Shown here: piece by piece, positions 6,089 through 61,722 of the stretch
Numbering within the stretch: position 1 is the first letter of the stretch
Layout of the letters: every line of letters begins with the position of its first letter
Assembly (NCBI GenBank): GCA_005889535.1
Contig: VBHC01000123.1
Location: forward strand, 1 to 61,722
DNA: 61,722 nt
From: Chloroflexota bacterium
Lineage (GTDB): Bacteria; Chloroflexota; Dormibacteria; CF-121
Reading direction: 5' to 3'
The notes under the pieces: model-generated
Database searches by the model: none
The model's input: the letters and a program-made list of their open reading frames with translations, nothing else
Told to the model about the DNA's origin: nothing
Translations under genes and position numbers: made by a program

Positions 6089-8313
6089 CGGCTCGCCGGC
6101 GCACACAACGCCACGTAGACCGGTGGCGAAAGCGCAGCCGTGCCGACTTCCGTCGCACCGTGATCCTTGGTGTCGTGGTGGTGTTGCTCCTGCCCCTGAT
6201 GGGCATCCCCGCGATCACCGCCCAGGCCGTTGGACCCTTGCCCGCCGTCAGCGGCCTGTCGTCCAACAAGCTCCAGCAGGACACGCTGATCTACGACCGC
6301 CATGGGCAGCTGCTCGCCGACGTCGGCAAGGAGGGCAATCACCGGATCGTCGTGCCCCTCAACTACGTCTCGCCCTGGGTCGTGAAGGCGACCCTGGCCA
6401 CCGAGGACCGCACCTTCTACAGCAACAGCGGCATCGACGTCGGCGGCATTCTTCGGGCCGCGATCGCGAACTACCAGCACCATCACATTCAGCAGGGCGG
6501 GAGCACCATCAGCCAGCAGTTGATCAAGCAGGTCTACATCGGAAGCAACGCTCCAAACGACATCCAGCGCAAGATGAAGGAAGCGATCCTTGCCATCGAG
6601 CTGAACCGCGAATACAGCAAGAATCAGATCCTGGAGATGTATCTCAACACCATCTTCTACGGGAGCCAGACCTATGGGATCGAGGCGGCAGCACGCAGCT
6701 ACTTCCAGACCAACGCCCACGATGTGTCGCTGGCCCAGGCCGCCATGCTGGCCGGCCTCCCTCAGGCGCCGACGCGATACAACCCGGTCGTCAACTTCGC
6801 GTCCGCCAAACAGCGCCAGGCGCAGGTGCTGGCCGCCATGGTTGGCGAGAAGTTCATCACGGCGGCCGACGCCCAGGCTGCCTATGCCGTCAAGCTCCAG
6901 GTCTTCTCTCCCGTCACCAAGTTCGAGGCGCCCTACTTCGTCGACTACGTCTTGAAGACGCTCGCCAAGGACCACGGCATCAACTCCAGCGATCAGCGGG
7001 GCTATCGCGTCTACACCAGCCTCGACCTGAATCTCCAGCACATGGCGGAGAAAGTGGTGCGCGACCAGGTGGCGCAGAAGGGCGGTTTCTACAACTTCCA
7101 TGATGCGGCGCTGGTCAGCATGGACCCGAAAACCGGCCAGGTGCTCGCCATGGTCGGCGGCGTCGACTACAACCGACCCGGAGGCCAATTCAACTTCGCC
7201 TACGACGTCCCGCGCCCGCCCGGCTCGAGTTTCAAGATCTTCACCTACACGGCCGCCATCGAGAGCCGGAAAGTAAACATGCTGAGTCCGGTGCTCGACG
7301 CCCCGATGGTCTTCCCCACCGGTGGCGATGGTCCCGGCTACATGAGCGGATATGCGAAGTACATTCCGCAGAACTATGACCGCCGCTTTCACGGCACGCT
7401 GCCGCTCAAAATGGTGATGGGTAACTCGTTGAACATCCCCGCGCTGAAGGTTGAGCTGCGCACGGGCATCCCCGCGGTGGTCGACATGGCACACCGACTT
7501 GGCCTGACCTGTCTGGGCGAACCCTGCGACCGAAAACCCGCTGACTACGGCATGAGCCTGACGCTGGGCGCCTACCCCGTACGGCTGGCGGACATGGCGA
7601 CCGCGGCCTCAACGCTGGCGACGCTCGGCGTCCGCCACCGCGAAGCGCCAATCCTCAGCATCAAGGACGGACTGGGCCGCGCCGTCTACACATATGACCC
7701 GAAAACCGTGGAGTACCGGGCGGTCGACCCGGGCGTGGCCTTCATCATCGCGTCCATCATGTCCGACGACCGCAACCGTTGCCTTGAATTCGGCTGTGGC
7801 GGCGACCTTACCCTGGCTGGGCGCCACGTCGCCGCCAAGACCGGCACCACCAACGATTTCAAAGACAACTGGACGGTCGGTTTTACACCGAGCCTGGCGA
7901 CCGCCGTGTGGGTGGGAAACCCTGACAACAAGCCGCTCAGTCACAACTCGACCGGGATCGTCGGCGCCGCTCCCATCTGGCACAAGTTCATGACACAGGC
8001 ACTCGCCGGCAAACCGGATGAGTGGTACGGCGCAGTCCCGGCAGGCATCGACCAGATCGGGCAGAACTACTTCCTGACCGGCACCGAAAACCTGCCGAAG
8101 ACGCTGGCGCAGCCGTGGCCGCAATGCAAGCTCCCCGCGAACTACAGTCCCTACAGCCTGAGCTATTCGCAGATCACGGTGGATGGCGTCTACTGCGTCA
8201 TCAACGCGCCCAAGCCGCCGCCGGCGCCGACGCCTTCACCCGCGCCCAGCCCAACGCCTGACTGCCTGCCGGGTCTACCGCTTCCGCCCGGTCAGTGCAA
8301 GCCACATGACTAG
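6019..8313 (+). CDS. Class A penicillin-binding protein (PBP1A-like)
   Basis: A bifunctional peptidoglycan synthase of about 764 residues. A basic cytoplasmic tail and one transmembrane helix (about residues 48-72) precede the GT51 transglycosylase domain, which shows EDRTFYSNSGID and GGSTISQQL. The transpeptidase domain has the SxxK motif SSFK (Ser about 403), SLN and KTGTT (Lys about 607). A Pro-rich tail ends the protein. It polymerises lipid II and cross-links peptides outside the membrane. The GTG at 6019 is the farthest start; a GTG at 6046 is also possible, and both overlap the small upstream gene. Confidence 0.93.
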   Translation: MGSGYAPLSVAPAFGDLRVSERLAARRRTQRHVDRWRKRSRADFRRTVILGVVVVLLLPLMGIPAITAQAVGPLPAVSGLSSNKLQQDTLIYDRHGQLLADVGKEGNHRIVVPLNYVSPWVVKATLATEDRTFYSNSGIDVGGILRAAIANYQHHHIQQGGSTISQQLIKQVYIGSNAPNDIQRKMKEAILAIELNREYSKNQILEMYLNTIFYGSQTYGIEAAARSYFQTNAHDVSLAQAAMLAGLPQAPTRYNPVVNFASAKQRQAQVLAAMVGEKFITAADAQAAYAVKLQVFSPVTKFEAPYFVDYVLKTLAKDHGINSSDQRGYRVYTSLDLNLQHMAEKVVRDQVAQKGGFYNFHDAALVSMDPKTGQVLAMVGGVDYNRPGGQFNFAYDVPRPPGSSFKIFTYTAAIESRKVNMLSPVLDAPMVFPTGGDGPGYMSGYAKYIPQNYDRRFHGTLPLKMVMGNSLNIPALKVELRTGIPAVVDMAHRLGLTCLGEPCDRKPADYGMSLTLGAYPVRLADMATAASTLATLGVRHREAPILSIKDGLGRAVYTYDPKTVEYRAVDPGVAFIIASIMSDDRNRCLEFGCGGDLTLAGRHVAAKTGTTNDFKDNWTVGFTPSLATAVWVGNPDNKPLSHNSTGIVGAAPIWHKFMTQALAGKPDEWYGAVPAGIDQIGQNYFLTGTENLPKTLAQPWPQCKLPANYSPYSLSYSQITVDGVYCVINAPKPPPAPTPSPAPSPTPDCLPGLPLPPGQCKPHD

Positions 8314-8340
8314 CGCCCCGACCGCTTCCCTGAGAGCGGC

Positions 8341-8715
8341 CTAGGCGATCCCCGGCTGGTCGGTGGAGGCTTTTTCGCCGCGGCCCTGCTCGCCGTCGCC
8401 GAAGGGCATCCGCTGGGCGAGCTCGCCGGCACGGTCACGGAGCTCGATGCCGCGCTGCATCAGGTCGTCTCGCATTTCCTCGCCGGTCTTGGGAGCGAGC
8501 AGTAAGGCGAGCCCGAAGCCGACAGCGACCCCGATCAACAGCCCGGTAACGAACCGCTCGACGCCGGCGTCTTCGTCCTGCGTGAGGCGGGTGCGCCGCA
8601 AGGCCGCCACCGCGTCCGTCAAACGGTCTTTCACCTCGAAATCCTGGGCCGCCTTGTTCGCGCGATCGAGCAGGTCGCTCAATCGGTCGATCGTCTTCTC
8701 CACGGTCTGATCCAT
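8341..8715 (-). CDS. YtxH-domain membrane protein
   Basis: About 124 residues. An amphipathic N-terminal helix is followed by one Gly-rich transmembrane segment ending in LLLAPKTGEEMR, the YtxH signature, and a charged tail. An AGGAGG lies 6 nt before the ATG at 8715 but directly abuts the upstream ATG at 8721, so 8715 is preferred. It forms an operon with the second YtxH-like gene. YtxH proteins are linked to general stress; their biochemical role is unclear. Confidence 0.7.
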   Translation of the reverse strand: MDQTVEKTIDRLSDLLDRANKAAQDFEVKDRLTDAVAALRRTRLTQDEDAGVERFVTGLLIGVAVGFGLALLLAPKTGEEMRDDLMQRGIELRDRAGELAQRMPFGDGEQGRGEKASTDQPGIA

Positions 8716-8717
8716 CC

Positions 8718-8951
8718 TCATCCTCCTATGGGCGCCTGGCCCGGCTTTCTATTCCTGGAGCGCCCCGCCGAGGGAGGCGTAACCGGCGAAGCCGACCCGG
8801 CCCCGCCACTGTTGGCAGCCATCATGTCCTCCGCCTGACCCAGTAGGCGCGACACCCGCTGCCGGGTGCGCAGCCCGGACTCGGGCGCATAGAGCAACCC
8901 CAGGATGGCGCCCGCGATCGCGCCATGGGTCAGACCTCGCAAATATCCCAT
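8718..8951 (-). CDS. Small YtxH-like protein
   Basis: About 77 residues starting at ATG 8951. A short Gly/Ala-rich hydrophobic stretch ends in LLYAPESGLRTRQRV, the YtxH-type signature; a Ser/Pro-rich tail follows. The longer frame to 9095 is unlikely because it runs into the region upstream of the divergent response regulator. The stop is next to the start of the following YtxH gene, so the two are co-translated. Confidence 0.6.
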   Translation of the reverse strand: MGYLRGLTHGAIAGAILGLLYAPESGLRTRQRVSRLLGQAEDMMAANSGGAGSASPVTPPSAGRSRNRKPGQAPIGG

Positions 8952-9163
8952 CTGGAAAACACGCTCCTCCCGCGCCAACCCCGCCCGGTACCGCCAAACG
9001 CTACGGCCATCGTACCACTTGCGTTTTTGCCGACCGACGCCGGTTTGGCGGCACGAAATTTCGGAATCTTGGGTGAACTTGGTTATACTTACCACCGGTG
9101 GAAAGGGGGGAAAGGTGACAGACGCGATGTTGACTTTCGCGATACGGCGTCCAAGGAGGGGAC

Positions 9164-9553
9164 ATGAGTGAAGTGGTCGATGAGGACGTTAACGTCCTCT
9201 TCATCGAAGATGACCCGGCCGTCGCCGAGATGTACAAGCTCAAGCTGGAGCTCGACGGCTACCGGGTTACCGTAGCCAAGTCCGGTGAGGAGGGCCTCGA
9301 CCACGCCAAGAACCAGGTGCCGGACATCGTGTTTCTCGACATCCGCCTTCCCAAGATGGATGGTTTTGCCGTCCTGGAGAATCTGCGCTCCGACAACGTG
9401 ACCAAGAACATCCCGGTCATCATCCTCTCCAACTACGGCGAAAAGGAGTTGGTCGACCGCGGTCTCAAGCTGGGCGCGCTCGACTACCTGATCAAGTCAG
9501 AGACCACGCCGGCAAGCCTCAGCCGTGGCGTACAGGATTGGGTCAAGGAATAG
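9164..9553 (+). CDS. Single-domain response regulator
   Basis: A 129-residue receiver domain without output domain. IEDD forms the acidic pocket, Asp59 in FLDIRLP is the phospho-acceptor, and ILSNY and YLIK supply the conserved Ser and Lys. It is a close paralogue of the receiver at 3587-4015. It overlaps the following MerR gene by 16 nt, exactly as in the first pair. A TATACT box lies at 9084-9089 upstream. Confidence 0.9.
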   Translation: MSEVVDEDVNVLFIEDDPAVAEMYKLKLELDGYRVTVAKSGEEGLDHAKNQVPDIVFLDIRLPKMDGFAVLENLRSDNVTKNIPVIILSNYGEKELVDRGLKLGALDYLIKSETTPASLSRGVQDWVKE

Positions 9554-24501: not shown

Positions 24502-24579
24502 GGCCCGTTCGTCTAGCTGGTCCAGGACGCTGCCCTCTCAAGGCAGAAATCAGCGGTTCGAATCCGCTACGGGCTACCA
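24502..24579 (+). tRNA. tRNA-Glu (CTC)
   Basis: A full cloverleaf. The acceptor stem GGCCCGT pairs with ACGGGCT (one G-U pair), the anticodon stem CTGCC/GGCAG carries loop CTCTCAA, and the T arm is AGCGG-TTCGAAT-CCGCT. The anticodon is CTC. CCA is encoded. The 3' end resembles the four repeats found downstream between 24870 and 27172. Confidence 0.95.
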
Positions 24580-24690
24580 CTCAACTGGACACTCTGCGGC
24601 TGTGCTTCCCGCTGAGGTTCTCCATCCCGACATTGGCGCTTGCCCGCAAGGTAACGTCGGTCATCGAGATTTAGCAGTCACAACACCGTC

Positions 24691-24939
24691 GTGTCTTACC
24701 CCACGCGACCCGAAGAAGATCAGGAGCGGACGCGGATCCAATTAGGCTGCGCCCTAGCGGCCGCCATTGGGATCGCTTTCCTGTTGCTTGTCCTCTTCGG
24801 AATCGTCTATTTGTTTTTCGTCGCTCTTGGGCATGTGACGATCGCTGCCGCAGCGGTTGAACAGACATCGCCTGGACTGGCGCCAAATTCGATTGTTCGA
24901 TTAGTGTCCGCCACGGGCTATAAAACCAATTTCGGATAG
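24691..24939 (+). CDS. Small membrane protein in cassette Glu-1
   Basis: An 82-residue frame with a GTG start and no clear ribosome-binding site. A polar N-terminus (RPEEDQERTR) precedes one strong transmembrane helix (about residues 20-45). The last 16 residues are encoded by the downstream repeat copy itself, so the original stop may have been replaced when the repeat was joined. Function unknown; the coding status is uncertain. Confidence 0.4.
   Translation: MSYPTRPEEDQERTRIQLGCALAAAIGIAFLLLVLFGIVYLFFVALGHVTIAAAAVEQTSPGLAPNSIVRLVSATGYKTNFG
24870..24920 (+). repeat. tRNA-Glu 3'-end-like repeat, copy 1
   Basis: A short hairpin (GCC-TGGACT-GGC), then CCAAATTCGATTGTTCGATT and AGTGTCCGCCACGGGCTA. 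GTTCGA, TCCGC and ACGGGCTA match the T arm and acceptor 3' strand of tRNA-Glu, with a 6-nt insert TTAGTG. Ends cassette Glu-1. Confidence 0.75.
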
Positions 24940-24986
24940 GTTCGGGCTATGCCTGCTGCGACACGTAGGCTTTGCCGCCCCCGGAG

Positions 24987-25571
24987 TCAGCTCCCAGGCC
25001 CAGCAACCGGCCCGAGAGAATTCGCGATCTGCCAGAACTCGGCTTCCGCGAAGCCCTCGGTGGAGAGGAAGTACGGGACGCCATACTCCGGCTTGATCTG
25101 GAGGTTCGGGCTGGCCGTGCCGGGCTCTCCCCAGTCAATGAACCTCCGGCTGGTGGGCGGCGACTGGCTATCGACCTGGTAAAGGGCCGTAACCCCGCGG
25201 AAACGCGGGTATGACTGGGTACCGTCTGGCTGCGGCGGCGGCGGTTGGGCTATCCCGAGCTCGAAGAAGATACGCCGCGAGCCGTCCACGCTGGCATAGG
25301 TGACCTGAAAGTCATCGGCCGACACTGTCACCTGGGCGGTGTATCCGACAGGAATTGCTTTAGGCAGAAGCACCGGCCGCGACCCGGTCACTGTCCGCCC
25401 GATCAGGGCCGCTGCCTCGTCCAACGAGAGGGTGCGCGGCATCGTGGCCGGGGTGGGGGAAGTCGGGGTCGTGTTGGTCGCCCGAGAGATATGTTGGGCC
25501 CCGCCGCACGCGCTGAGAATGAGGGTCGCCGCAATGGCGAGGCCGGAACCCGCGCGGGCTAGCTTGCGCAC
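24987..25571 (-). CDS. Lipoprotein in cassette Glu-2
   Basis: A 194-residue secreted lipoprotein. The signal peptide ends in the lipobox LSACGG, with the lipidated Cys near residue 22, followed by a Thr/Pro-rich linker. The soluble domain has no recognised catalytic motif. It is the only gene between repeat copies 1 and 2. It points toward the tRNA, against the direction of the flanking small genes. Function unknown. Confidence 0.7.
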   Translation of the reverse strand: MRKLARAGSGLAIAATLILSACGGAQHISRATNTTPTSPTPATMPRTLSLDEAAALIGRTVTGSRPVLLPKAIPVGYTAQVTVSADDFQVTYASVDGSRRIFFELGIAQPPPPQPDGTQSYPRFRGVTALYQVDSQSPPTSRRFIDWGEPGTASPNLQIKPEYGVPYFLSTEGFAEAEFWQIANSLGPVAGPGS

Positions 25572-25782
25572 CTTCTAGCTGTGTTAACGATCGCCGCTCC
25601 GGAAAGTTCCTCGGGCTCTGCAGCAAGGTACCAAAGTGCACGCTTTAGACTCGCAGATGGGGAGTCGGCAGACGCCCTAGAGGCTGGGCAACCTGTCATT
25701 GAATAGGCTCCCGGGGGTCTCCTGCTCCCCTCGCTTAAGCTCCCGGTGTCCTTGACACTGCCTCGCGGTGCCCACTTAAACT
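25572..25782. other. Gene-free stretch in cassette Glu-2
   Basis: About 210 nt upstream of the lipoprotein gene. No ORF with coding character and no tRNA is seen. It holds GAATAGGC at 25700, weakly like the short boxes found after repeat copies 1 and 3. Confidence 0.4.
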
Positions 25783-25838
25783 ACGGGTCTGCTGGGACCG
25801 ACCCAATTAAATTGTTCGATTAGTGTCCGCTGGGGCTA
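25783..25838 (+). repeat. tRNA-Glu 3'-end-like repeat, copy 2
   Basis: A hairpin GGTC-TGCTGG-GACC followed by CCCAATTAAATTGTTCGATT, AGTGTCCGC and GGGGCTACC. The left part matches copy 4 over about 55 nt. The core differs from the other copies only in the two bases after CCGC. Confidence 0.75.
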
Positions 25839-25961
25839 CCGCCGAACTCCGGTTCCATGGCCGACGCGCCTGCGCCGAATGTGTAATCCCGTGCGGATCT
25901 GGTCGTGCCGCCGAGCCACCCGCTTACCATAAGGGCGCTAACAGGACATGAGAGGTGAGCC

Positions 25962-26324
25962 ATGGAGCAGGTGCTAACGATCTCGACAACCTGGGGAACG
26001 AACGACCCAACGAAGGCAACGATCCCATTCCATCTAGCCCGCGGCGCCAAGCAGACCGGCATTGATGTCCGGATTGTTCTCGCGGGCGACTCGACAGACC
26101 TGATCCGCTCGGGCGTTGCGGAGACGGTACGAGGCAAGGGCGTACCGCCGCTTGCTGAAGTTCTGGACTTCGCGCGCGAAAACAAAATCCCAGTGCATGT
26201 CTGAAAGGGTTGCGCCGAGGCCCGTGGGGTCTCTCAGGCTGAGGTCGATGCCATCGGCGGATCGTGGATCGATCCAAAAGGTTGGACGCGCTTGATCATT
26301 GAGGGACGTAACATCGCGTTCTAA
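25962..26324 (+). CDS. DsrE-family protein, candidate selenoprotein
   Basis: An ATG with GAGAGG upstream opens a DsrE/DsrF-like fold: TISTTWGTNDPTKAT, VRIVLAGDSTDLI, GVPPLAEVLDFA, KIPVHV. At codon 81 (26202-26204) the frame has TGA where family members have the first Cys of a CxxC motif. The same frame continues KGCAEARGVS for 39 more codons to TAA at 26322. Reading TGA as selenocysteine gives UKGC, a UxxC redox motif, in a 120-residue protein of normal length. A bSECIS-like hairpin follows. DsrE-like selenoproteins are known from metagenomes. Otherwise it is a nonsense-mutated pseudogene. Confidence 0.7.
26205..26233 (+). promoter_or_regulatory. Candidate bSECIS hairpin
   Basis: GAGGCCC-GTG-GGGTCTC (26217-26233) forms a 7-bp stem with one G-U pair and a 3-nt loop starting with G. 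The loop begins 20 nt after the TGA, within the usual 16-37 nt window for bacterial SECIS elements. Confidence 0.5.
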
Positions 26325-26343
26325 TTAGACGGTCGTGCCTGAC

Positions 26344-26391
26344 GGCGACGAGTCGCCAAAGCCGTGTCCGATTAGTGTCCGCCACGGGCTA
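26344..26391 (+). repeat. tRNA-Glu 3'-end-like repeat, copy 3
   Basis: A hairpin GGCGAC-GA-GTCGCC followed by a shortened left arm and GTCCGATTAGTGTCCGCC, ACGGGCTA. Part of the AATTGTT stretch present in the other copies is missing. Confidence 0.7.
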
Positions 26392-26420
26392 TGACTACCC
26401 CAACTCTTGAATAGGCCGAG

Positions 26421-27077
26421 CTATCGAGTGATGTTGGTCTTGGCCCTCGCCGCACTGGCTAAGCGCCCGGCGCTGCGCCTGCGCCATAGGACGATACCGC
26501 CAATTCCAGCTGCGATCAGAACCAGCGCCGCGACCTCGGGCAGGAGCTCGATCGGCGACCACGGCGACCGGCCCATCGCCCAGACGGTCAAACCGCTCGG
26601 CATGGTTGAGCATTGGACCTCGCCTTTGCTGCTGTAGCGCGTCGGAGGCAATCCATCATCGGCGCTCCGTGTCAGGTGGGCCCAGAGACCGCCTCTGTTA
26701 GCGTTGGTAAAGGTGACGTCAAGCGAGTTCAGCACGAGATGTTCGTGTTGCCGATGTCGCGCCGCGAAATAGGCCATCAAGTTCTCCCGGTCGTACGCTT
26801 CCGCGTTGAGACGCTGTCCAGGGGCATCCGTTGCATACCAGACAAACTGCTGCTGGGATACGAGTCGGTCCAGTTGGGCGATGTCGCCCCGGTTGAAGGC
26901 ATCAATGAAGCGCTCGACGACCTGGCGGACTCCTTGGGGCGTGCATTGATTTGGAGTACCGGGCGAGCCCGATGCAGCTCCCACCTGGCAACCGGCCAGA
27001 AGGACGAGCTGCGTGCAGCTCGCCACGATTAGCCAGAGACGTCTGCCCATCGCCAGAACGACGCGGGCCTTGCCCAT
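26421..27077 (-). CDS. NTF2-like lipoprotein in cassette Glu-4
   Basis: A 218-residue protein. The lipobox LLAGC marks the mature Cys near residue 30. The domain FIDAFNRGDIAQLDRLV with later FTNANRGGLWAHLTR resembles SnoaL/NTF2-like folds. A C-terminal transmembrane helix with a basic tail (RRRSAGR) follows. It is the only gene between repeat copies 3 and 4. A ligand-binding or scaffold role is possible; no catalytic residues are assignable. Confidence 0.65.
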   Translation of the reverse strand: MGKARVVLAMGRRLWLIVASCTQLVLLAGCQVGAASGSPGTPNQCTPQGVRQVVERFIDAFNRGDIAQLDRLVSQQQFVWYATDAPGQRLNAEAYDRENLMAYFAARHRQHEHLVLNSLDVTFTNANRGGLWAHLTRSADDGLPPTRYSSKGEVQCSTMPSGLTVWAMGRSPWSPIELLPEVAALVLIAAGIGGIVLWRRRSAGRLASAARAKTNITR

Positions 27078-27116
27078 TCCCCTGCGGCGCAGCCTACCCC
27101 ACGCCGACGGCTTACG

Positions 27117-27172
27117 ACGGGTCTTTGGAGACCGGCCAATTCAATTGTTCGATTAGTGTCCGCCACGGGCTA
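27117..27172 (+). repeat. tRNA-Glu 3'-end-like repeat, copy 4
   Basis: A hairpin GGTCT-TTGG-AGACC followed by CCAATTCAATTGTTCGATT and AGTGTCCGCCACGGGCTAC. Nearly the same as copy 2 outside the hairpin loop. It marks the last copy seen; the toxin-antitoxin genes follow. Confidence 0.75.
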
Positions 27173-27230: not shown

Positions 27231-27629
27231 TTAATCGCGGACCTCGCGAAATCCGGCTGCTGTGAAATCGCCGTCAAAAGCCAGCGCTTCCCGGATTCGT
27301 AGCGATCGCATGAGAGCAAAGCTCGTCGCGTCCACGAAGGAATATTCGCGCTCGTCATGACGGCGCAGCCAACGTAGCGCCGCCGTCTCTAAATCGGCAG
27401 ATACAACAACCAGTCGAAGCCGCGGCGACCGGTCGATTGAATCGAGAAAATCAACTGCCGATCGGTGCCCGGCGCGCCGCCGGAGGAATGTCCACGTCTC
27501 CCCGCGGACGTGATTGCTGGTGACCAGTGGCTCCGCGGCGTGGCTTGCCAGAAGGCTTCGTGCCAGGTCGTGAGAATTGTCGCGGCGGTTACGAAGCGCC
27601 ACCCAGAACGACGTATCGACAAAGATCAC
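27231..27629 (-). CDS. PIN-domain toxin (VapC-like)
   Basis: A 132-residue PIN-domain ribonuclease starting at GTG. The N-terminal FVDTSFW gives the first acidic residue, E in RGETW the second, and SFVDATSFALM and FDGDF the remaining ones. VapC toxins cut RNA when freed from their antitoxin. The start overlaps the antitoxin stop by 4 nt, as usual for vapBC operons. Confidence 0.85.
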   Translation of the reverse strand: MIFVDTSFWVALRNRRDNSHDLARSLLASHAAEPLVTSNHVRGETWTFLRRRAGHRSAVDFLDSIDRSPRLRLVVVSADLETAALRWLRRHDEREYSFVDATSFALMRSLRIREALAFDGDFTAAGFREVRD

Positions 27630-27838
27630 CGATAGACGACATCGTCGATCGCGGCGGGCTCGAAGTCATCAGCACCGGCCATCCGTCCGATGGGGTCGGC
27701 CGACAGTGGGGGGAGCGGCTTAAGGCGCTCGCGAACGTAGAGCCGGATCAAAGCGGCCTTCGACGTACGGGCCTCGAGCGCGGCCCTCTCTAGTTCCGCG
27801 TCGACGTCCTCTTCGATCATGATCTGGAGCCGTTTCAT
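27626..27838 (-). CDS. Ribbon-helix-helix antitoxin (VapB-like)
   Basis: About 70 residues from ATG 27838. The N-terminus KRLQIMIEEDVDAELERAA is the ribbon and first helix of a CopG/Arc-like DNA-binding dimer; the acidic C-terminus would wrap the toxin. The farther ATG at 27856 sits inside the operator region and is less likely. An inverted repeat at 27850-27873 is the probable autoregulatory site. Confidence 0.8.
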   Translation of the reverse strand: MKRLQIMIEEDVDAELERAALEARTSKAALIRLYVRERLKPLPPLSADPIGRMAGADDFEPAAIDDVVYR

Positions 27839-27849
27839 GGTTGGAGTAT

Positions 27850-27873
27850 ACATCACTTCTTTGATGTTGATGT
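27850..27873. promoter_or_regulatory. Operator of the toxin-antitoxin operon
   Basis: ACATCA-N6-TGATGT inverted repeat followed by a second direct TGATGT. It overlaps a TATACT -10 box (27850-27845, minus strand) in front of the antitoxin gene, as expected for autorepression. Confidence 0.55.
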
Positions 27874-27956
27874 AAGAATAGGTTCGCGGCTAGATACTCT
27901 TCCTGCGTCGGGGCCTGACCCTTGACTGCCGGATCGCCCTCCTCGATGCTTCGACT

Positions 27957-29561
27957 GTGGGAGGTGCCTCGGGGCGGATAACGGTTCGGGAACGGATCCA
28001 TCCCGAGATCACGGCCACGCTTTTTGCCAACTACCGGTCTTCGGCGGACACGCTGATGGAGCTGATCGACAACGCTTTGGATTCGCGCCGATCTGGAGAG
28101 CCAATGAAGGTGGAGGTCGCCATTCACGGTGAAGGGATCACGGTGATGAGCGAAGGCGGCGAGGGCATGGGGCCGAAGGACCTCGAACGCCGCTATCTCC
28201 GTTGGGGCAAGTCCACCAAGCGCGGCAAGGACCTGCTTGGACAATACGGCCAGGGTGGTAAGGCAGCGATCGGTCATCTCGGCCGTAGCTTCTCGGTCGA
28301 GTCAAGTCGTCCGGGCGACCCTATAGCCTGGCGTTTTACCGACCCAAACTACCGTGACCGGAGCCGACTGAAGACCTACGAGTTGCATGAGGTGGCCAAG
28401 CATGTTGCAGACGATCTTGGCTACGTTCGGATCCGGATCGATGACGTCGATAAGCGGGTCGACTTAAAGCGGGTTGGCCAGCGGCTCGCCGATGCATTTC
28501 GTCTGCTTCTCGAGCGAGGCGATCTCCAGATCATCTTGAACGGGTCGCCGCTAAGGCCAAGGTCGCTCGGGGAAGTCGCACGTAAGGATTTTCGTGTCAG
28601 GGCTGCCGCTACCATCGTTGCTGGCTGGGTCGGAACGGTCGATCCCGCGAAGAGGACCGCCGACTTCGTTCCCGGCGTGCGGTGCTATCGGTTAGGGCGC
28701 CTGGTCAAAGACGGCGAGTTCTTCGGGCACCCAACACCCGCCCAGGAGCCTGGAATGGCGCTGTTGATCGGCGAGGTTGAAATTCCTCGGGTCCCGCTGA
28801 CGATCAACAAGAGCGACTTCGATCGGGACAGCGCACCGTGGGTCGACATCGAGGGTCGACTCCATCGCCTGCTGAAGCCGATCGCGCGGCAGCTCTCGAG
28901 GCAGCCCGAGAGTCCGCCCCCACCATCCGCGGTTAGAGTCGCTCAGCAGGTGCGGCGTTTATTGAGCCAGGCGCTTCGCTGGGCAGACCGCCCTGAACTC
29001 TTCCTAGGCAGCGCTCCAATGCGTCCCCGGATGTCAGCCCCAAGCAATGGTGATCGAGCATCCCAACCGCATCTGCCTGAGGCGGAGCAGCCGCCCCTAT
29101 CACAAAGCGGATCAAATGCTGCATCGAAGCGCCGGGGCTTCGGGGATATCGTCATCAGGCAGCTCGGCCCGGCGATCCGAAGCCAGACCGTTATCAAGGA
29201 TGCAGTCAAAGTCGTCGTGATCAATTCGCAGCATCCCCTCTATCGCGAGCGCAAAGGCGACATCTGGTATCAGCTCGAAACCGCGGCAAGCGAGATATGC
29301 AAATCCATCGAAGGCGTGACCGTCGCCGAATACGAACGCCGGGTCAACGAGATTGTGCTTCTCGCTTTCCGGCGGCCGCCAATCCCAGGCATAGGCCTCA
29401 TCAGCACCATTGCTTCCAAAGAATGTGAACCCCACCACTCCCTTGGGATGGCTGGCAGGTTAGTAGCCAGTCGCTCCATCAATGCGCTCCCGAAGGAGAT
29501 CCGCATGCCCGTTGTGTCGGGAGTACTCCTCAATCATGTGGACCAGGATCCAGCGCAGTGA
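27957..29561 (+). CDS. GHKL ATPase (Hsp90/MORC-like) of unknown role
   Basis: A 534-residue protein starting at GTG. The Bergerat fold is clear: ELIDNALD (N box) near residues 35-42, SEGGEGMG where DxGxG is expected (Asp replaced), and GQYGQGGKAAIG (G2). A transducer-like domain with INKSDFDRD follows, then a Pro-rich linker and a C-terminal helical domain. No histidine-kinase or nuclease domain is seen. It lies in the accessory region beside a toxin-antitoxin pair. The last 34 codons run antisense through the end of the DinB gene, so the original C-terminus may be lost. Confidence 0.7.
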   Translation: MGGASGRITVRERIHPEITATLFANYRSSADTLMELIDNALDSRRSGEPMKVEVAIHGEGITVMSEGGEGMGPKDLERRYLRWGKSTKRGKDLLGQYGQGGKAAIGHLGRSFSVESSRPGDPIAWRFTDPNYRDRSRLKTYELHEVAKHVADDLGYVRIRIDDVDKRVDLKRVGQRLADAFRLLLERGDLQIILNGSPLRPRSLGEVARKDFRVRAAATIVAGWVGTVDPAKRTADFVPGVRCYRLGRLVKDGEFFGHPTPAQEPGMALLIGEVEIPRVPLTINKSDFDRDSAPWVDIEGRLHRLLKPIARQLSRQPESPPPPSAVRVAQQVRRLLSQALRWADRPELFLGSAPMRPRMSAPSNGDRASQPHLPEAEQPPLSQSGSNAASKRRGFGDIVIRQLGPAIRSQTVIKDAVKVVVINSQHPLYRERKGDIWYQLETAASEICKSIEGVTVAEYERRVNEIVLLAFRRPPIPGIGLISTIASKECEPHHSLGMAGRLVASRSINALPKEIRMPVVSGVLLNHVDQDPAQ

Positions 29562-59392: not shown

Positions 59393-59464
59393 GGGGGTGT
59401 AGCTCAGTGGTAGAGCACCTGCCTTTTAAGCAGGGTGTCGAGAGTTCGATCCTCTCCGCCCCTA
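59393..59464 (+). tRNA. tRNA-Lys (TTT)
   Basis: A full cloverleaf: acceptor GGGGGTG/CGCCCCT (two G-U pairs), D arm GCTC...GAGC, anticodon stem CCTGC/GCAGG with loop CTTTTAA, T arm GAGAG-TTCGATC-CTCTC, discriminator A. CCA is not encoded. Its 3' half is repeated twice downstream. Confidence 0.95.
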
Positions 59465-59643
59465 CTTCATCGCCAGCCTTGAAGCGTGGCGTGAATGGAT
59501 AACCCATCCGATGCGCAGCTAGCGTGCCGTGCGCGGTTCCCTAAAGCATCAAGGCAATTCTTGCTTCGACGTTCCATTGTCGCCTGGCTGGATGACACTG
59601 GCGACCGTCATGCTAGCGTCCTCCCCGTCGGCCAGCCACCAGG

Positions 59644-60150
59644 TTACGGAGCAACGAGTATCAGTGACGACATTCGTGGGCAGCCCAACACAGGCTCTTT
59701 GAGGATGTCTTCCGGAGCCGTCACAGCGCCATCGAGATTCACGAACTCGCCGACGGTAGCCACCGGCTGGCCGTTCTGGCTATAGACGGTCAACGGATTA
59801 CCGTGCGCCGAATATCGGGGCGGCCACATCAGGGCAGGCTGGTAGCCTTCGTTACTAAGCCAAAAGCAGGCCGTGCCGTCAGCGTTGATTCGACCTGCGA
59901 GCAAACCAGTTACTCCCGTCAATGCGCGTCCTTCCGGTAAAGCGCCGGCCCCGGCGGGGGGAGACCAAGTGGCCACCTTGTAACTGGGGGTGGACGACCC
60001 GATCCGGAACCCGACGACACCGAATGAGACAAGCACTACAGCGGTTAGGAGCATGTAAGCGTGGCCAGGCTTTTCTTTGACAAGAGATCGAGCCAGAGTC
60101 ACAAGCCTCATAAAGGGTATGACGGACGCCGCGCGGCAACCCGACAGCAC
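59644..60150 (-). CDS. Membrane-anchored protein in cassette Lys-1
   Basis: A 168-residue frame starting at GTG, with an inner ATG at 60111 as alternative. A transmembrane helix (about residues 33-50) precedes an extracytoplasmic domain with two Cys. No family recognised. It is the only gene between tRNA-Lys and repeat copy 2. Confidence 0.5.
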   Translation of the reverse strand: MLSGCRAASVIPFMRLVTLARSLVKEKPGHAYMLLTAVVLVSFGVVGFRIGSSTPSYKVATWSPPAGAGALPEGRALTGVTGLLAGRINADGTACFWLSNEGYQPALMWPPRYSAHGNPLTVYSQNGQPVATVGEFVNLDGAVTAPEDILKEPVLGCPRMSSLILVAP

Positions 60151-60295
60151 ATTGAGACCAGCGGAACATACTTTGGCAGGGAGTAAGAGACTGGTGCGCT
60201 GAAGGCGCTAAATAGCCGGAATGGTCTCCTCTTTGTCCATGGCGTCGGAGACTTCGGCGGCGCTGCTAGCTCCTAGAAAGCCGTTCTTGAGCGTG

Positions 60296-60414
60296 CCATT
60301 CCCCTGCACCATAACTGCGCCAGCGTCGCTTGACCTCCCAAACTCGGAGCTACAGCGCACAAGCGCGCCTGGCTTTTAAGCTGGGTGTCGAGAGTTCGAT
60401 CCTCTCCGCCCCTA
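60296..60414 (+). repeat. tRNA-Lys 3'-half repeat, copy 2
   Basis: A left arm with inverted repeat CGCTTG (60327) / CAAGCG (60360) is followed by CTTTTAAGC and then a 32-nt stretch identical to the variable loop, T arm and acceptor 3' strand of tRNA-Lys, ending at the discriminator base. The 5' half and acceptor pairing are lost, so it is not a working tRNA. Confidence 0.8.
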
Positions 60415-60514
60415 TGTCGGATACATTCGCACACCCTAACGGCAACCGGCCTGAGCTACGAGGTCGACTCACATCCCAACTCGTCCCCTTTGGCCTTGCT
60501 CGGGCAGGAAGGAC

Positions 60515-61162
60515 GTGAACTCGTATCCGTTGAAGAGTTCGATGTCTATTCTGAGCCGCCGCCGAGGGGTGAACGTCCTCTCCGCGTTTGCCGTCGCAGT
60601 AGCAGCGATATTGATTGGATGGGCGGCCCTAGCTTGGCTGATGCCGGCCAATAGCCGGAAGGCTGACCGGCAATCCACGTGTACCCTTCCGACAGGTTCG
60701 GTCACCTACCAGGAGCTGCAATGCCATCCCGAGGCGAACTTGATCTACCCCGGAAGCACGGTTTTCCAGGGGATTGGTGCTTCGCAGACCAACACTTTCG
60801 ACGGTATCAATCCGGCCTTTAGCGGGGCCATTTTGATCTCGTCGGATCCGGTAACTAAAATCTATGCTTGGTACGACTCTTGGCTAAAGCAGCATGAGTG
60901 GTACCGCTCGCCCCTACTCGGAGCCGGTTATGTTTCGTCGCACGGCTATGCACGCGTTGGTGGGCGAGAAGCCTTCGACGTGGATATCGATAATCCGGCT
61001 CAACTTAGCGCTACGCTCGGAAAAAAGGTTCCTGCGGGTGGCACGATTTTCGAGGTCGTCTACCTCGTCTTCCCGTATACAGCCGGGGCGAAGTCGGCCC
61101 CATCTTGCGCATCAACTCCACCACCCACCGGACCACTGGACTCTTTCTATTGCAATCCGTGA
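60515..61162 (+). CDS. Membrane-anchored protein in cassette Lys-2
   Basis: A 215-residue protein from GTG 60515 (GGAAGGA upstream), or ATG 60542. One transmembrane helix (about residues 24-44) anchors an extracytoplasmic domain with four Cys. No family recognised. Base composition is lower in GC than the flanking core genes. Confidence 0.6.
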   Translation: MNSYPLKSSMSILSRRRGVNVLSAFAVAVAAILIGWAALAWLMPANSRKADRQSTCTLPTGSVTYQELQCHPEANLIYPGSTVFQGIGASQTNTFDGINPAFSGAILISSDPVTKIYAWYDSWLKQHEWYRSPLLGAGYVSSHGYARVGGREAFDVDIDNPAQLSATLGKKVPAGGTIFEVVYLVFPYTAGAKSAPSCASTPPPTGPLDSFYCNP

Positions 61163-61392
61163 TCCCATTGGTCTTTTAACTCAGCAAACTTGACGCTGGA
61201 TCATCGTGGCGAACCGTAATGGCCGTACCTTGGGTCTACGAAGGGTGGAGAGGGCACTGCGTAAGCCAGGGGATGCCGTGGCACAGGCCAATGCTGAGCC
61301 TCCGCCCCAGAGATGGGATCCAGCCGCGCAGGTAAAACGGGTAACCGGAGCCTAACGGCTTATGTTTCGTCTCGCTCGGCTCGAACCAGGGA
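61163..61392. other. Gene-free stretch in cassette Lys-2
   Basis: About 230 nt with short frames only, none with coding character. No tRNA or terminator with a T tract is seen. It leads into repeat copy 3. Confidence 0.4.
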
Positions 61393-61510
61393 CCATTTCG
61401 CACACCATAACTTCGCCGGTTTCGCTTGGCCGCGGCAACTCGAGGCTACAGCGCTCAAGCCCTGCTACCTTTTAAGCAGGGTGTCGAGAGTTCGATCCTC
61501 TCCGCCCCTA
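61393..61510 (+). repeat. tRNA-Lys 3'-half repeat, copy 3
   Basis: The left arm matches copy 2 (ACACCATAACTTCGCC, CGCTTGG, ACTCG, GCTACAGCGC, CAAGC). The core from CCTTTTAAGCAGGG to CGCCCCTA is identical to tRNA-Lys. The 5' half is not a tRNA. Confidence 0.8.
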
Positions 61511-61567
61511 ATCCAAATACAAAGGCACAGCCCAACTAATTTCCTGCCCGTACAGCGCTTGAGGGAA

Positions 61568-61722
61568 TTACTCGGCACCCATCGCCCGAGGATTACCAAC
61601 CCGCGTGGTGTTGGCTGTTGGCGCGGTTGACACGGAGATGACGACCTTTCCTCGAGCGCGCCCGGTTTCGAGATAGCGGATCGCGTCTGCGGCTTCGCTC
61701 AGCGGATACGTCCGGTCAATGA
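61568..61722 (-). CDS. MDR/zinc-type alcohol dehydrogenase, C-terminal end
   Basis: The minus frame enters at the window edge and ends at TAA 61570-61568. IDRTYPLSEAADAIRYLETG and ARGKVVISV are the classic C-terminus of medium-chain dehydrogenase/quinone-oxidoreductase proteins. The N-terminal and cofactor domains lie outside the window. Confidence 0.7.
   Translation of the reverse strand, partial: IDRTYPLSEAADAIRYLETGRARGKVVISVSTAPTANTTRVGNPRAMGAE

What the first reader, a model, noticed from the sequence alone, without database searches (positions are those of the whole stretch)
59393..61510. A second, independent cassette array behind tRNA-Lys
The 3' half of tRNA-Lys, identical over at least 32 nt up to the discriminator base, is repeated at 60383-60414 and 61479-61510. 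Between copies lie two single-gene intervals, each with one membrane-anchored protein. The design is the same as at tRNA-Glu, 35 kb away, but core and arm sequences differ. Two tRNA genes with the same architecture in one window argues for a general mechanism in this organism.
Basis: partly seen in the sequence, partly recalled or inferred. Interest (0 to 1): 0.85.

Follow-up and report, generated by a model that had tools for sequence, protein, structure and literature searches.

The report
Mobile gene-cassette array behind tRNA-Lys
Behind a lysine-tRNA gene of a soil Chloroflexota bacterium sits a row of very small, recombinase-free DNA cassettes, each ending in a copy of the tRNA's 3' half; related species carry different cassettes in different order at the same place, so the tRNA gene seems to act as a fixed docking point for interchangeable genes.

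Summary
The 3' half of tRNA-Lys(TTT) recurs at 60373-60414 and 61469-61510, each copy preceded by a conserved ~65-nt left arm that is not tRNA. The array runs past the contig end onto another contig of the same genome (an ADH+TetR cassette, then at least one more interval). In eight other genomes of the family the DNA upstream of tRNA-Lys is orthologous (73-90%), while the DNA after it varies: the ADH cassette is third here, first in G002, G005 and G012, inverted in G001; an SDR cassette moves likewise. No integrase or relic lies in any Lys interval; the genome's only tyrosine recombinase is a frameshifted Xer-like gene. 3'-end copies occur only downstream of tRNA genes, behind at least four here and about nine in relative G003. 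Outside the family the same left arm is joined to Thr, Gln-like and Gly tRNA ends, once next to an intact tyrosine integrase. Best reading: non-autonomous integrative cassettes inserted by a tyrosine integrase acting in trans. The kind is known (additive islands, CIME accretion); the variant is new: tiny cassettes, many tRNAs, a conserved arm with exchangeable tRNA cores. Present mobility is not shown.

The parts
59393..59464 (+). tRNA-Lys(TTT) gene, the fixed docking site (attB-like); identity with the copies begins at the anticodon loop (59422) and ends at the discriminator base
   Evidence: ARAGORN and Infernal; repeat limits
59465..60414 (+). cassette 1 (950 bp), from the base after the tRNA to the end of the second core
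   Evidence: core ends at 59464 and 60414
59644..60150 (-). cargo gene of cassette 1: small protein with one N-terminal membrane segment; no Pfam family; paralogue in own contig C23 (47%) and homologue in G017
60306..60372 (+). left arm of the recombination site of cassette 1 (CACCATAACT..CGCTTG..AACTCGGAGCTACAGCGCACA)
   Evidence: alignment A1, model hit 60306-60421
60373..60414 (+). core 2: copy of the tRNA-Lys 3' half
60415..61510 (+). cassette 2 (1096 bp)
   Evidence: core ends at 60414 and 61510
60515..61162 (+). cargo gene of cassette 2: one N-terminal membrane segment plus a soluble domain; no Pfam family; homologue in G010 (38%)
61401..61467 (+). left arm of the recombination site of cassette 2 (CACACCATAACT..CGCTTGGCC..CTCGAGGCTACAGCGCTCA)
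   Evidence: alignment A1, model hit 61401-61517
61468..61510 (+). core 3: exact 43-nt copy of the tRNA-Lys 3' half
61511..61722 (-). start of cassette 3 (ADH + TetR): C-terminal part of a zinc-dehydrogenase gene; continues on own contig C64 and ends there in a degenerate Lys core with full left arm
   Evidence: 97% identical to the DNA directly after tRNA-Lys in G002 and G005; C64

Best explanation
The stretch is a tandem array of very small integrative elements (cassettes) without a recombinase, docked at the 3' half of tRNA-Lys(TTT). Each cassette carries one recombination site at its distal end: a ~65-nt left arm plus the tRNA 3' half from the anticodon loop to the discriminator base. Inferred mechanism: a tyrosine integrase supplied in trans recombines the site of a circular cassette with the tRNA (or with a core already in the array), crossing over in or near the anticodon loop; the tRNA is rebuilt each time, the newest cassette lands next to it, and core-by-core recombination removes or reorders cassettes. 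Shown here: site anatomy, exact cassette boundaries at the core, different content and order at the same locus in related species, absence of integrase genes and relics from the Lys intervals, and the same layout behind many tRNA genes. Inferred: the tyrosine integrase, the circular intermediate, the direction of growth, and present activity.
For: Exact core copies with a conserved left arm. Unrelated cassettes share only the terminal ~108 nt. Same upstream DNA (73-90%) but different downstream DNA in nine genomes; ADH cassette third here, first in G002, G005, G012, inverted in G001; SDR cassette in G003, G008, G001; cupin cassette in G005 and G006. Chromosomal backbone resumes at the same base in five genomes. 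No integrase or relic in nine Lys stretches. 3' copies only downstream: 8 to 0 here, 15 to 0 in G003. Integrase relics in a Cys interval of G003 and the SeC interval here point to an origin from integrase-bearing elements. The Lys arm recurs on other tRNA ends in families f2 and f4, once beside an intact tyrosine integrase.
Against: No integrase specific for tRNA-Lys(TTT) was found in any of 18 family genomes. No excision, circle or population data. Genomes are drafts (75-95% complete). The two window cassettes themselves were found in no other genome. G001 is rearranged and degenerate, and the fourth core here has a 6-nt deletion, so part of the array is decaying.
Confidence: 0.66

Rival explanations
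1. Relics: ordinary integrative elements entered tRNA-Lys one after another, lost integrase and most genes (CIMEs), and are now fixed. Differences between species come from old insertions, deletion and homologous recombination between the cores.
For: CIME formation and accretion is an established route (PMC5704250). Integrase relics in a Cys interval of G003 and the SeC interval here. Degenerate cores in own C64 and G001. Cores of ~110 nt could support homologous recombination.
Against: No integrase relic in any Lys interval. Cassettes are uniformly small and hold intact-looking genes. Arms are conserved in full in most cassettes. Whole cassettes 93-97% identical stand in different order in species whose flanks are only 73-90% identical.
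Confidence: 0.22
2. The host's own Xer-like recombinase, the only tyrosine recombinase in most array-bearing genomes, moves the cassettes.
For: It is the only PF00589 locus in own, G002, G005 and G012, which all have the array. It is XerC-like.
Against: It is frameshifted in this assembly. The site has the layout of an integrase with arm sites; the arms differ between tRNAs, which one Xer would not explain. An arm-bearing site in G107 lies beside a different integrase.
Confidence: 0.07
3. It is an integron or a sedentary chromosomal integron with a tRNA-like attC.
For: Tandem small cassettes behind a fixed site, recombinase not in the cassettes.
Against: No integron integrase. Site does not fold better than shuffles beyond the tRNA T-arm, no compensatory pairs. 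Cargo genes point in both directions.
Confidence: 0.02
4. Duplicated tRNA pseudogenes or an assembly artefact.
For: Copies look like truncated tRNAs (Infernal 22.5 bits); the contig ends close by.
Against: Copies consist of a 3' half joined to a non-tRNA arm that is conserved in independent assemblies; in G003 the whole array lies inside one 226-kb contig.
Confidence: 0.02

Closest known systems
Additive flexible genomic islands with repeats of a tRNA-Lys(CTT) end (Ca. Methylopumilus fGI-2, PMC10872708)
   Same: Repeated tRNA-Lys 3' ends bounding variable intervals down to 330 bp and one gene, mostly of unknown function, in a fixed chromosomal place
   Different: Repeats there are 20 nt; here ~42 nt of tRNA plus a conserved ~65-nt arm, no interval above 3.6 kb among the closed Lys ones, many tRNA genes per genome, other phylum
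Dehalococcoides ssrA genomic islands (PMC3146451)
   Same: Same phylum; tandem islands downstream of an RNA gene, bounded by copies of its end; 15 of them without integration module
   Different: There the integrase is a serine recombinase encoded by many of the islands, the repeat is 20 bp, and islands are far larger
CIMEs and site-specific accretion (PMC5704250)
   Same: Elements that keep attL/attR and lack integration and transfer genes, stacked at one site
   Different: CIMEs are recognised as decayed ICEs or IMEs; no such ancestry or helper is visible for the Lys cassettes
Integrons (IntI, attI, attC)
   Same: Works like one: fixed entry site, tandem small cassettes each with one site, recombinase not in the cassette
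   Different: No IntI, no folded attC, tRNA gene as entry site, genes in both orientations with their own starts
Tycheposons (as summarised in PMC10872708)
   Same: tRNA-bounded cargo elements linked to tyrosine recombinases
   Different: Tycheposons are 4-200 kb with a XerD-type recombinase; these are 0.95-3.6 kb with none

Membership tests
tRNA-targeted integrative elements / genomic islands | Restored tRNA gene and displaced 3' fragment mark the two ends of the element | tested here: met
tRNA-targeted integrative elements / genomic islands | Element encodes its own integrase | tested here: not met
   No PF00589 or PF00239 hit and no relic in the Lys intervals
CIME (cis-mobilizable element) | att sites kept, no integration or transfer genes | tested here: met
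   transfer genes not seen among cargo
CIME (cis-mobilizable element) | Derived from an ICE or IME by loss of those genes | tested here: inconclusive
   Integrase relics in Cys (G003) and SeC (own) intervals, none in Lys intervals
Additive flexible genomic island | Variable content at a fixed site by serial insertion at repeated tRNA ends | tested here: met
Integron | Integron integrase IntI | tested here: not met
   Only a Xer-like gene; the IntI model is not among its hits
Integron | Folded single-stranded attC site | tested here: not met
   z-scores -1.8 to 0.2; consensus fold gives the tRNA T-arm and no compensatory pair
Tycheposon | 4-200 kb element with tyrosine recombinase (xerD) beside a tRNA | tested here: not met
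   Closed intervals 0.95-3.6 kb, no recombinase
Site-specifically mobile cassette (any family) | Excision as a circle and site-specific reinsertion | not testable with these tools
   Needs reads or experiments

The most novel reading that the evidence does not exclude
A cassette-capture system that works like an integron but uses tRNA genes as entry sites: one integrase family reads a conserved ~65-nt arm (ATAACT, CGCTYGGCC and GCYACAGCGCTCA boxes) while the tRNA core beside the arm is exchangeable, so the same system serves Lys, Thr, Gln-like and Gly tRNA genes in different families of one Chloroflexota class and shuffles one-gene cassettes between species.
Probability: 0.3. Interest if true: 0.85.

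Novelty: new variant of a known kind. Interest (0 to 1): 0.63.

Why it matters
Integrons are the standard example of bacteria stockpiling single genes at a fixed site. Here a similar architecture stands behind many tRNA genes of uncultured soil bacteria, without an integron integrase. If the cassettes are mobile, tRNA genes are gene-capture platforms, and part of the unknown single-gene variation in soil genomes becomes predictable by searching for tRNA 3' copies. The conserved arm with exchangeable tRNA cores gives a direct handle on how integrases change their target tRNA.

Tried and rejected
Chance or pseudogene duplication: rejected. Integron: no IntI, no folded attC. Serine recombinase: PF00239 is absent from the own genome. 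Helper on a virus or plasmid: Lys and Glu cores have no exact match in viral contigs, the Lys site none in plasmids or phages. The arm pattern gives 95 viral matches, but none has the arm context or a tRNA end, so they count as chance. Arm repeats of the own Ser(TGA) cassette are not found at the G009 Ser(TGA) integrase. A test for a fixed right arm gave only a weak, partial repeat. AlphaFold models of the two cassette proteins are too poor to use (pLDDT 47 and 42), so no fold search was run. Homologues of the cassette genes elsewhere are not flanked by Lys or Glu cores.

Full report
OBSERVATION. The tRNA-Lys(TTT) gene is at 59393-59464. Its 3' part recurs exactly at 60383-60414 and 61479-61510, as reported; the third copy is exact over 43 nt. 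No other sequence of 32 nt or more is repeated in the window. The repeat is larger than the tRNA half: copies 2 and 3 share 134 nt at 79%, because a left arm that is not tRNA precedes the core. Each interval holds one main gene with one N-terminal membrane segment and no Pfam family. Both proteins have homologues elsewhere, so they are real genes.

WHERE THE ARRAY ENDS. The window is a complete contig (C46) of a 2.77-Mb draft genome in 221 contigs, 81% complete. Relatives in GTDB are 'Chloroflexi bacterium' MAGs; that they come from soil is my reading of the record names. The last 212 bases belong to a third cassette with an ADH gene. Its other end, with the ADH N-terminus, a TetR gene, a full left arm and a core with a 6-nt deletion, is the end of contig C64; the missing middle is about 495 bp, judged from the homologous copy in G001. 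After a further ~4.2 kb on C64 the conserved chromosome resumes.

COMPARISON OF SPECIES. In G002, G003, G005, G006, G008, G009, G012 and G017 the DNA upstream of tRNA-Lys is 73-90% identical to the window. The DNA after the discriminator base is not uniform. The ADH cassette follows the tRNA directly in G002 and G005 (97% identical) and G012 (92%), is third here, and is inverted in G001. An SDR/SDR/HTH cassette of 2.7 kb (93-96%) is first in G003 and G008 and elsewhere in G001. A cupin cassette is first in G006 and internal in G005. Between unrelated cassettes only the terminal ~108 nt (arm plus core) are similar, 82-93%. The backbone resumes at the same base in own, G001, G002, G003 and G006. 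G003 has the whole array inside one 226-kb contig, so an assembly artefact is excluded. Cargo includes ADH, TetR, SDRs, an MmyB-type regulator, a GNAT, a cupin, a haloperoxidase-like protein and several unknown proteins. Closed Lys intervals measure 0.95-3.6 kb.

GENERALITY. I scanned tRNA genes of the own genome and of G003 for 3'-end copies (at least 18 of 24 nt) within 15 kb. Leaving out a pair of neighbouring Met tRNAs, the own genome has 8 downstream and 0 upstream, G003 has 15 downstream and 0 upstream; the opposite strand gives 2 and 1. Behind which tRNA genes: Lys, Glu, Ser(TGA), SeC and perhaps Gly(TCC) here; Lys, Cys(GCA), Ser(GGA), three Gly genes, Phe, SeC and perhaps Pro in G003, which also has many Glu-type cores. 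The weakest single-copy matches may be chance. Sites of different tRNAs have different arms: Lys and Ser start at or near the anticodon loop, Gly and Glu at the T-arm; the Cys copies share arms of their own. So there are several parallel systems of one kind rather than one. At tRNA-Glu, too, each relative has different DNA directly after the gene.

THE RECOMBINASE. The own genome has one tyrosine-recombinase locus, a Xer-like gene next to aconitase, frameshifted in this assembly, and no serine recombinase. Relatives have this Xer plus integrases; where a tRNA is near those, it is another one: Lys(CTT), Gly(CCC), Ser(TGA), Cys, Thr. No integrase or relic of statistical weight is in any of nine Lys stretches. 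Two other intervals do hold relics: a Cys cassette of G003 keeps 81 residues at 72% of the integrase that sits at tRNA-Cys in G015, and the SeC interval here keeps 38 residues at 68%. This supports an origin of cassettes from integrase-bearing elements that lost the gene.

THE ARM IS SHARED BEYOND THE FAMILY. A sequence-only model of the Lys site, run over 110 genomes of the class, finds the left arm again in families f2 and f4, joined to other tRNA ends. By best match to held tRNAs these are Thr(TGT) in G088, Thr(GGT) in G032 and a Gln-like end in G064 and G022; in G107 the anticodon loop reads as Gly(CCC), though its best whole match is ambiguous; G101 has no clear tRNA end. These assignments use tRNAs of other genomes, not of the same one. 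G064 and G022 have several arm matches, some on one contig. In 2.87 Mb of held DNA the box [CT]ACAGCG[CA][TA]CA occurs almost only at such sites. In G107 the box is present twice, and an intact 313-aa tyrosine integrase (PF00589, E 7e-22) starts about 180 nt after the core. It is the best candidate for the type of recombinase, by position only. Its relatives in family f1 are the Lys(CTT) and Gly(CCC) integrases of G015, but no arm box was found near those.

MECHANISM. Most likely an integrase in trans inserts circular cassettes at tRNA-Lys or at a core, crossing over in or near the anticodon loop (the start of identity), and the tRNA is restored each time. Shown: anatomy, boundaries, changed order between species, absence of integrase in the array. 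Inferred: enzyme, circle, polarity, present activity. The main rival is an array of relics shuffled by homologous recombination.

KNOWN AND NEW. Tandem tRNA- or tmRNA-bounded islands, some without integrase, are known: Dehalococcoides ssrA islands (PMC3146451), CIMEs (PMC5704250), and additive islands with repeats of a tRNA-Lys end (PMC10872708). This case is a variant: very small cassettes with long conserved arms, many tRNA genes per genome, and an arm that keeps its sequence while the tRNA core changes. I found no description of that last point in the papers searched, but most subscription journals are not covered.

Noticed in passing
window 25962-26324 (+), inside an interval of the tRNA-Glu array: A DsrE-family gene (PF02635, E 1e-11) reads through an in-frame TGA at a U-x-x-C motif (residue 81), and the genome has a tRNA-SeC: a candidate selenoprotein carried by a cassette. 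The folding downstream of the TGA is not better than shuffles.
   Followed up: partly
window 24502-27172; own contig C181:1148-3109; G003 C3, C4, C11, C12, C29: Glu-type core GTTCGATTAGTGTCCGCCACGGGCTA in dense arrays (290-1430 bp apart), also away from tRNA-Glu; on C181 it points towards a tRNA-Arg.
   Followed up: partly
L232 (G003:C12) and L233 (G003:C3): Large serine recombinase genes lie within 1-3 kb of the same Glu-type cassette in two places of G003, one of them at tRNA-Gly(CCC): possible vehicles of Glu cassettes.
   Followed up: partly
L092 (own C198:3151-4875): One-gene 1.6-kb element at tRNA-Ser(TGA): exact copy of the tRNA 3' part, and the direct repeat GACGGCAAC twice on each side, as expected of integrase arm sites; no integrase.
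   Followed up: partly
L291 (G003:C33), reverse complement 7908-9280: A tRNA-Cys cassette keeps a truncated integrase (81 residues at 72% of the G015 tRNA-Cys integrase): an intermediate between an autonomous element and a cassette.
   Followed up: yes
L164 (own C24:6196-7067): The single Xer-like gene next to aconitase is frameshifted in this assembly but intact in most relatives.
   Followed up: partly
first ~135 bp of cassettes in G008, G009, G005:C57 and own C64 (L102): A shared head module with repeats of the type TTCGGCTGATGTGTC stands in front of unrelated cargo; possibly the end of an insertion sequence.
   Followed up: no
window 27231-28277 (-): A PIN-domain gene with a short neighbouring gene, perhaps a toxin-antitoxin pair, stands directly after the last Glu core.
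   Followed up: no
L163 (G001:C231): G001 has the ADH cassette inverted, a degenerate Lys core, an IS30-like transposase gene nearby and no tRNA-Lys on the contig: a rearranged array.
   Followed up: partly
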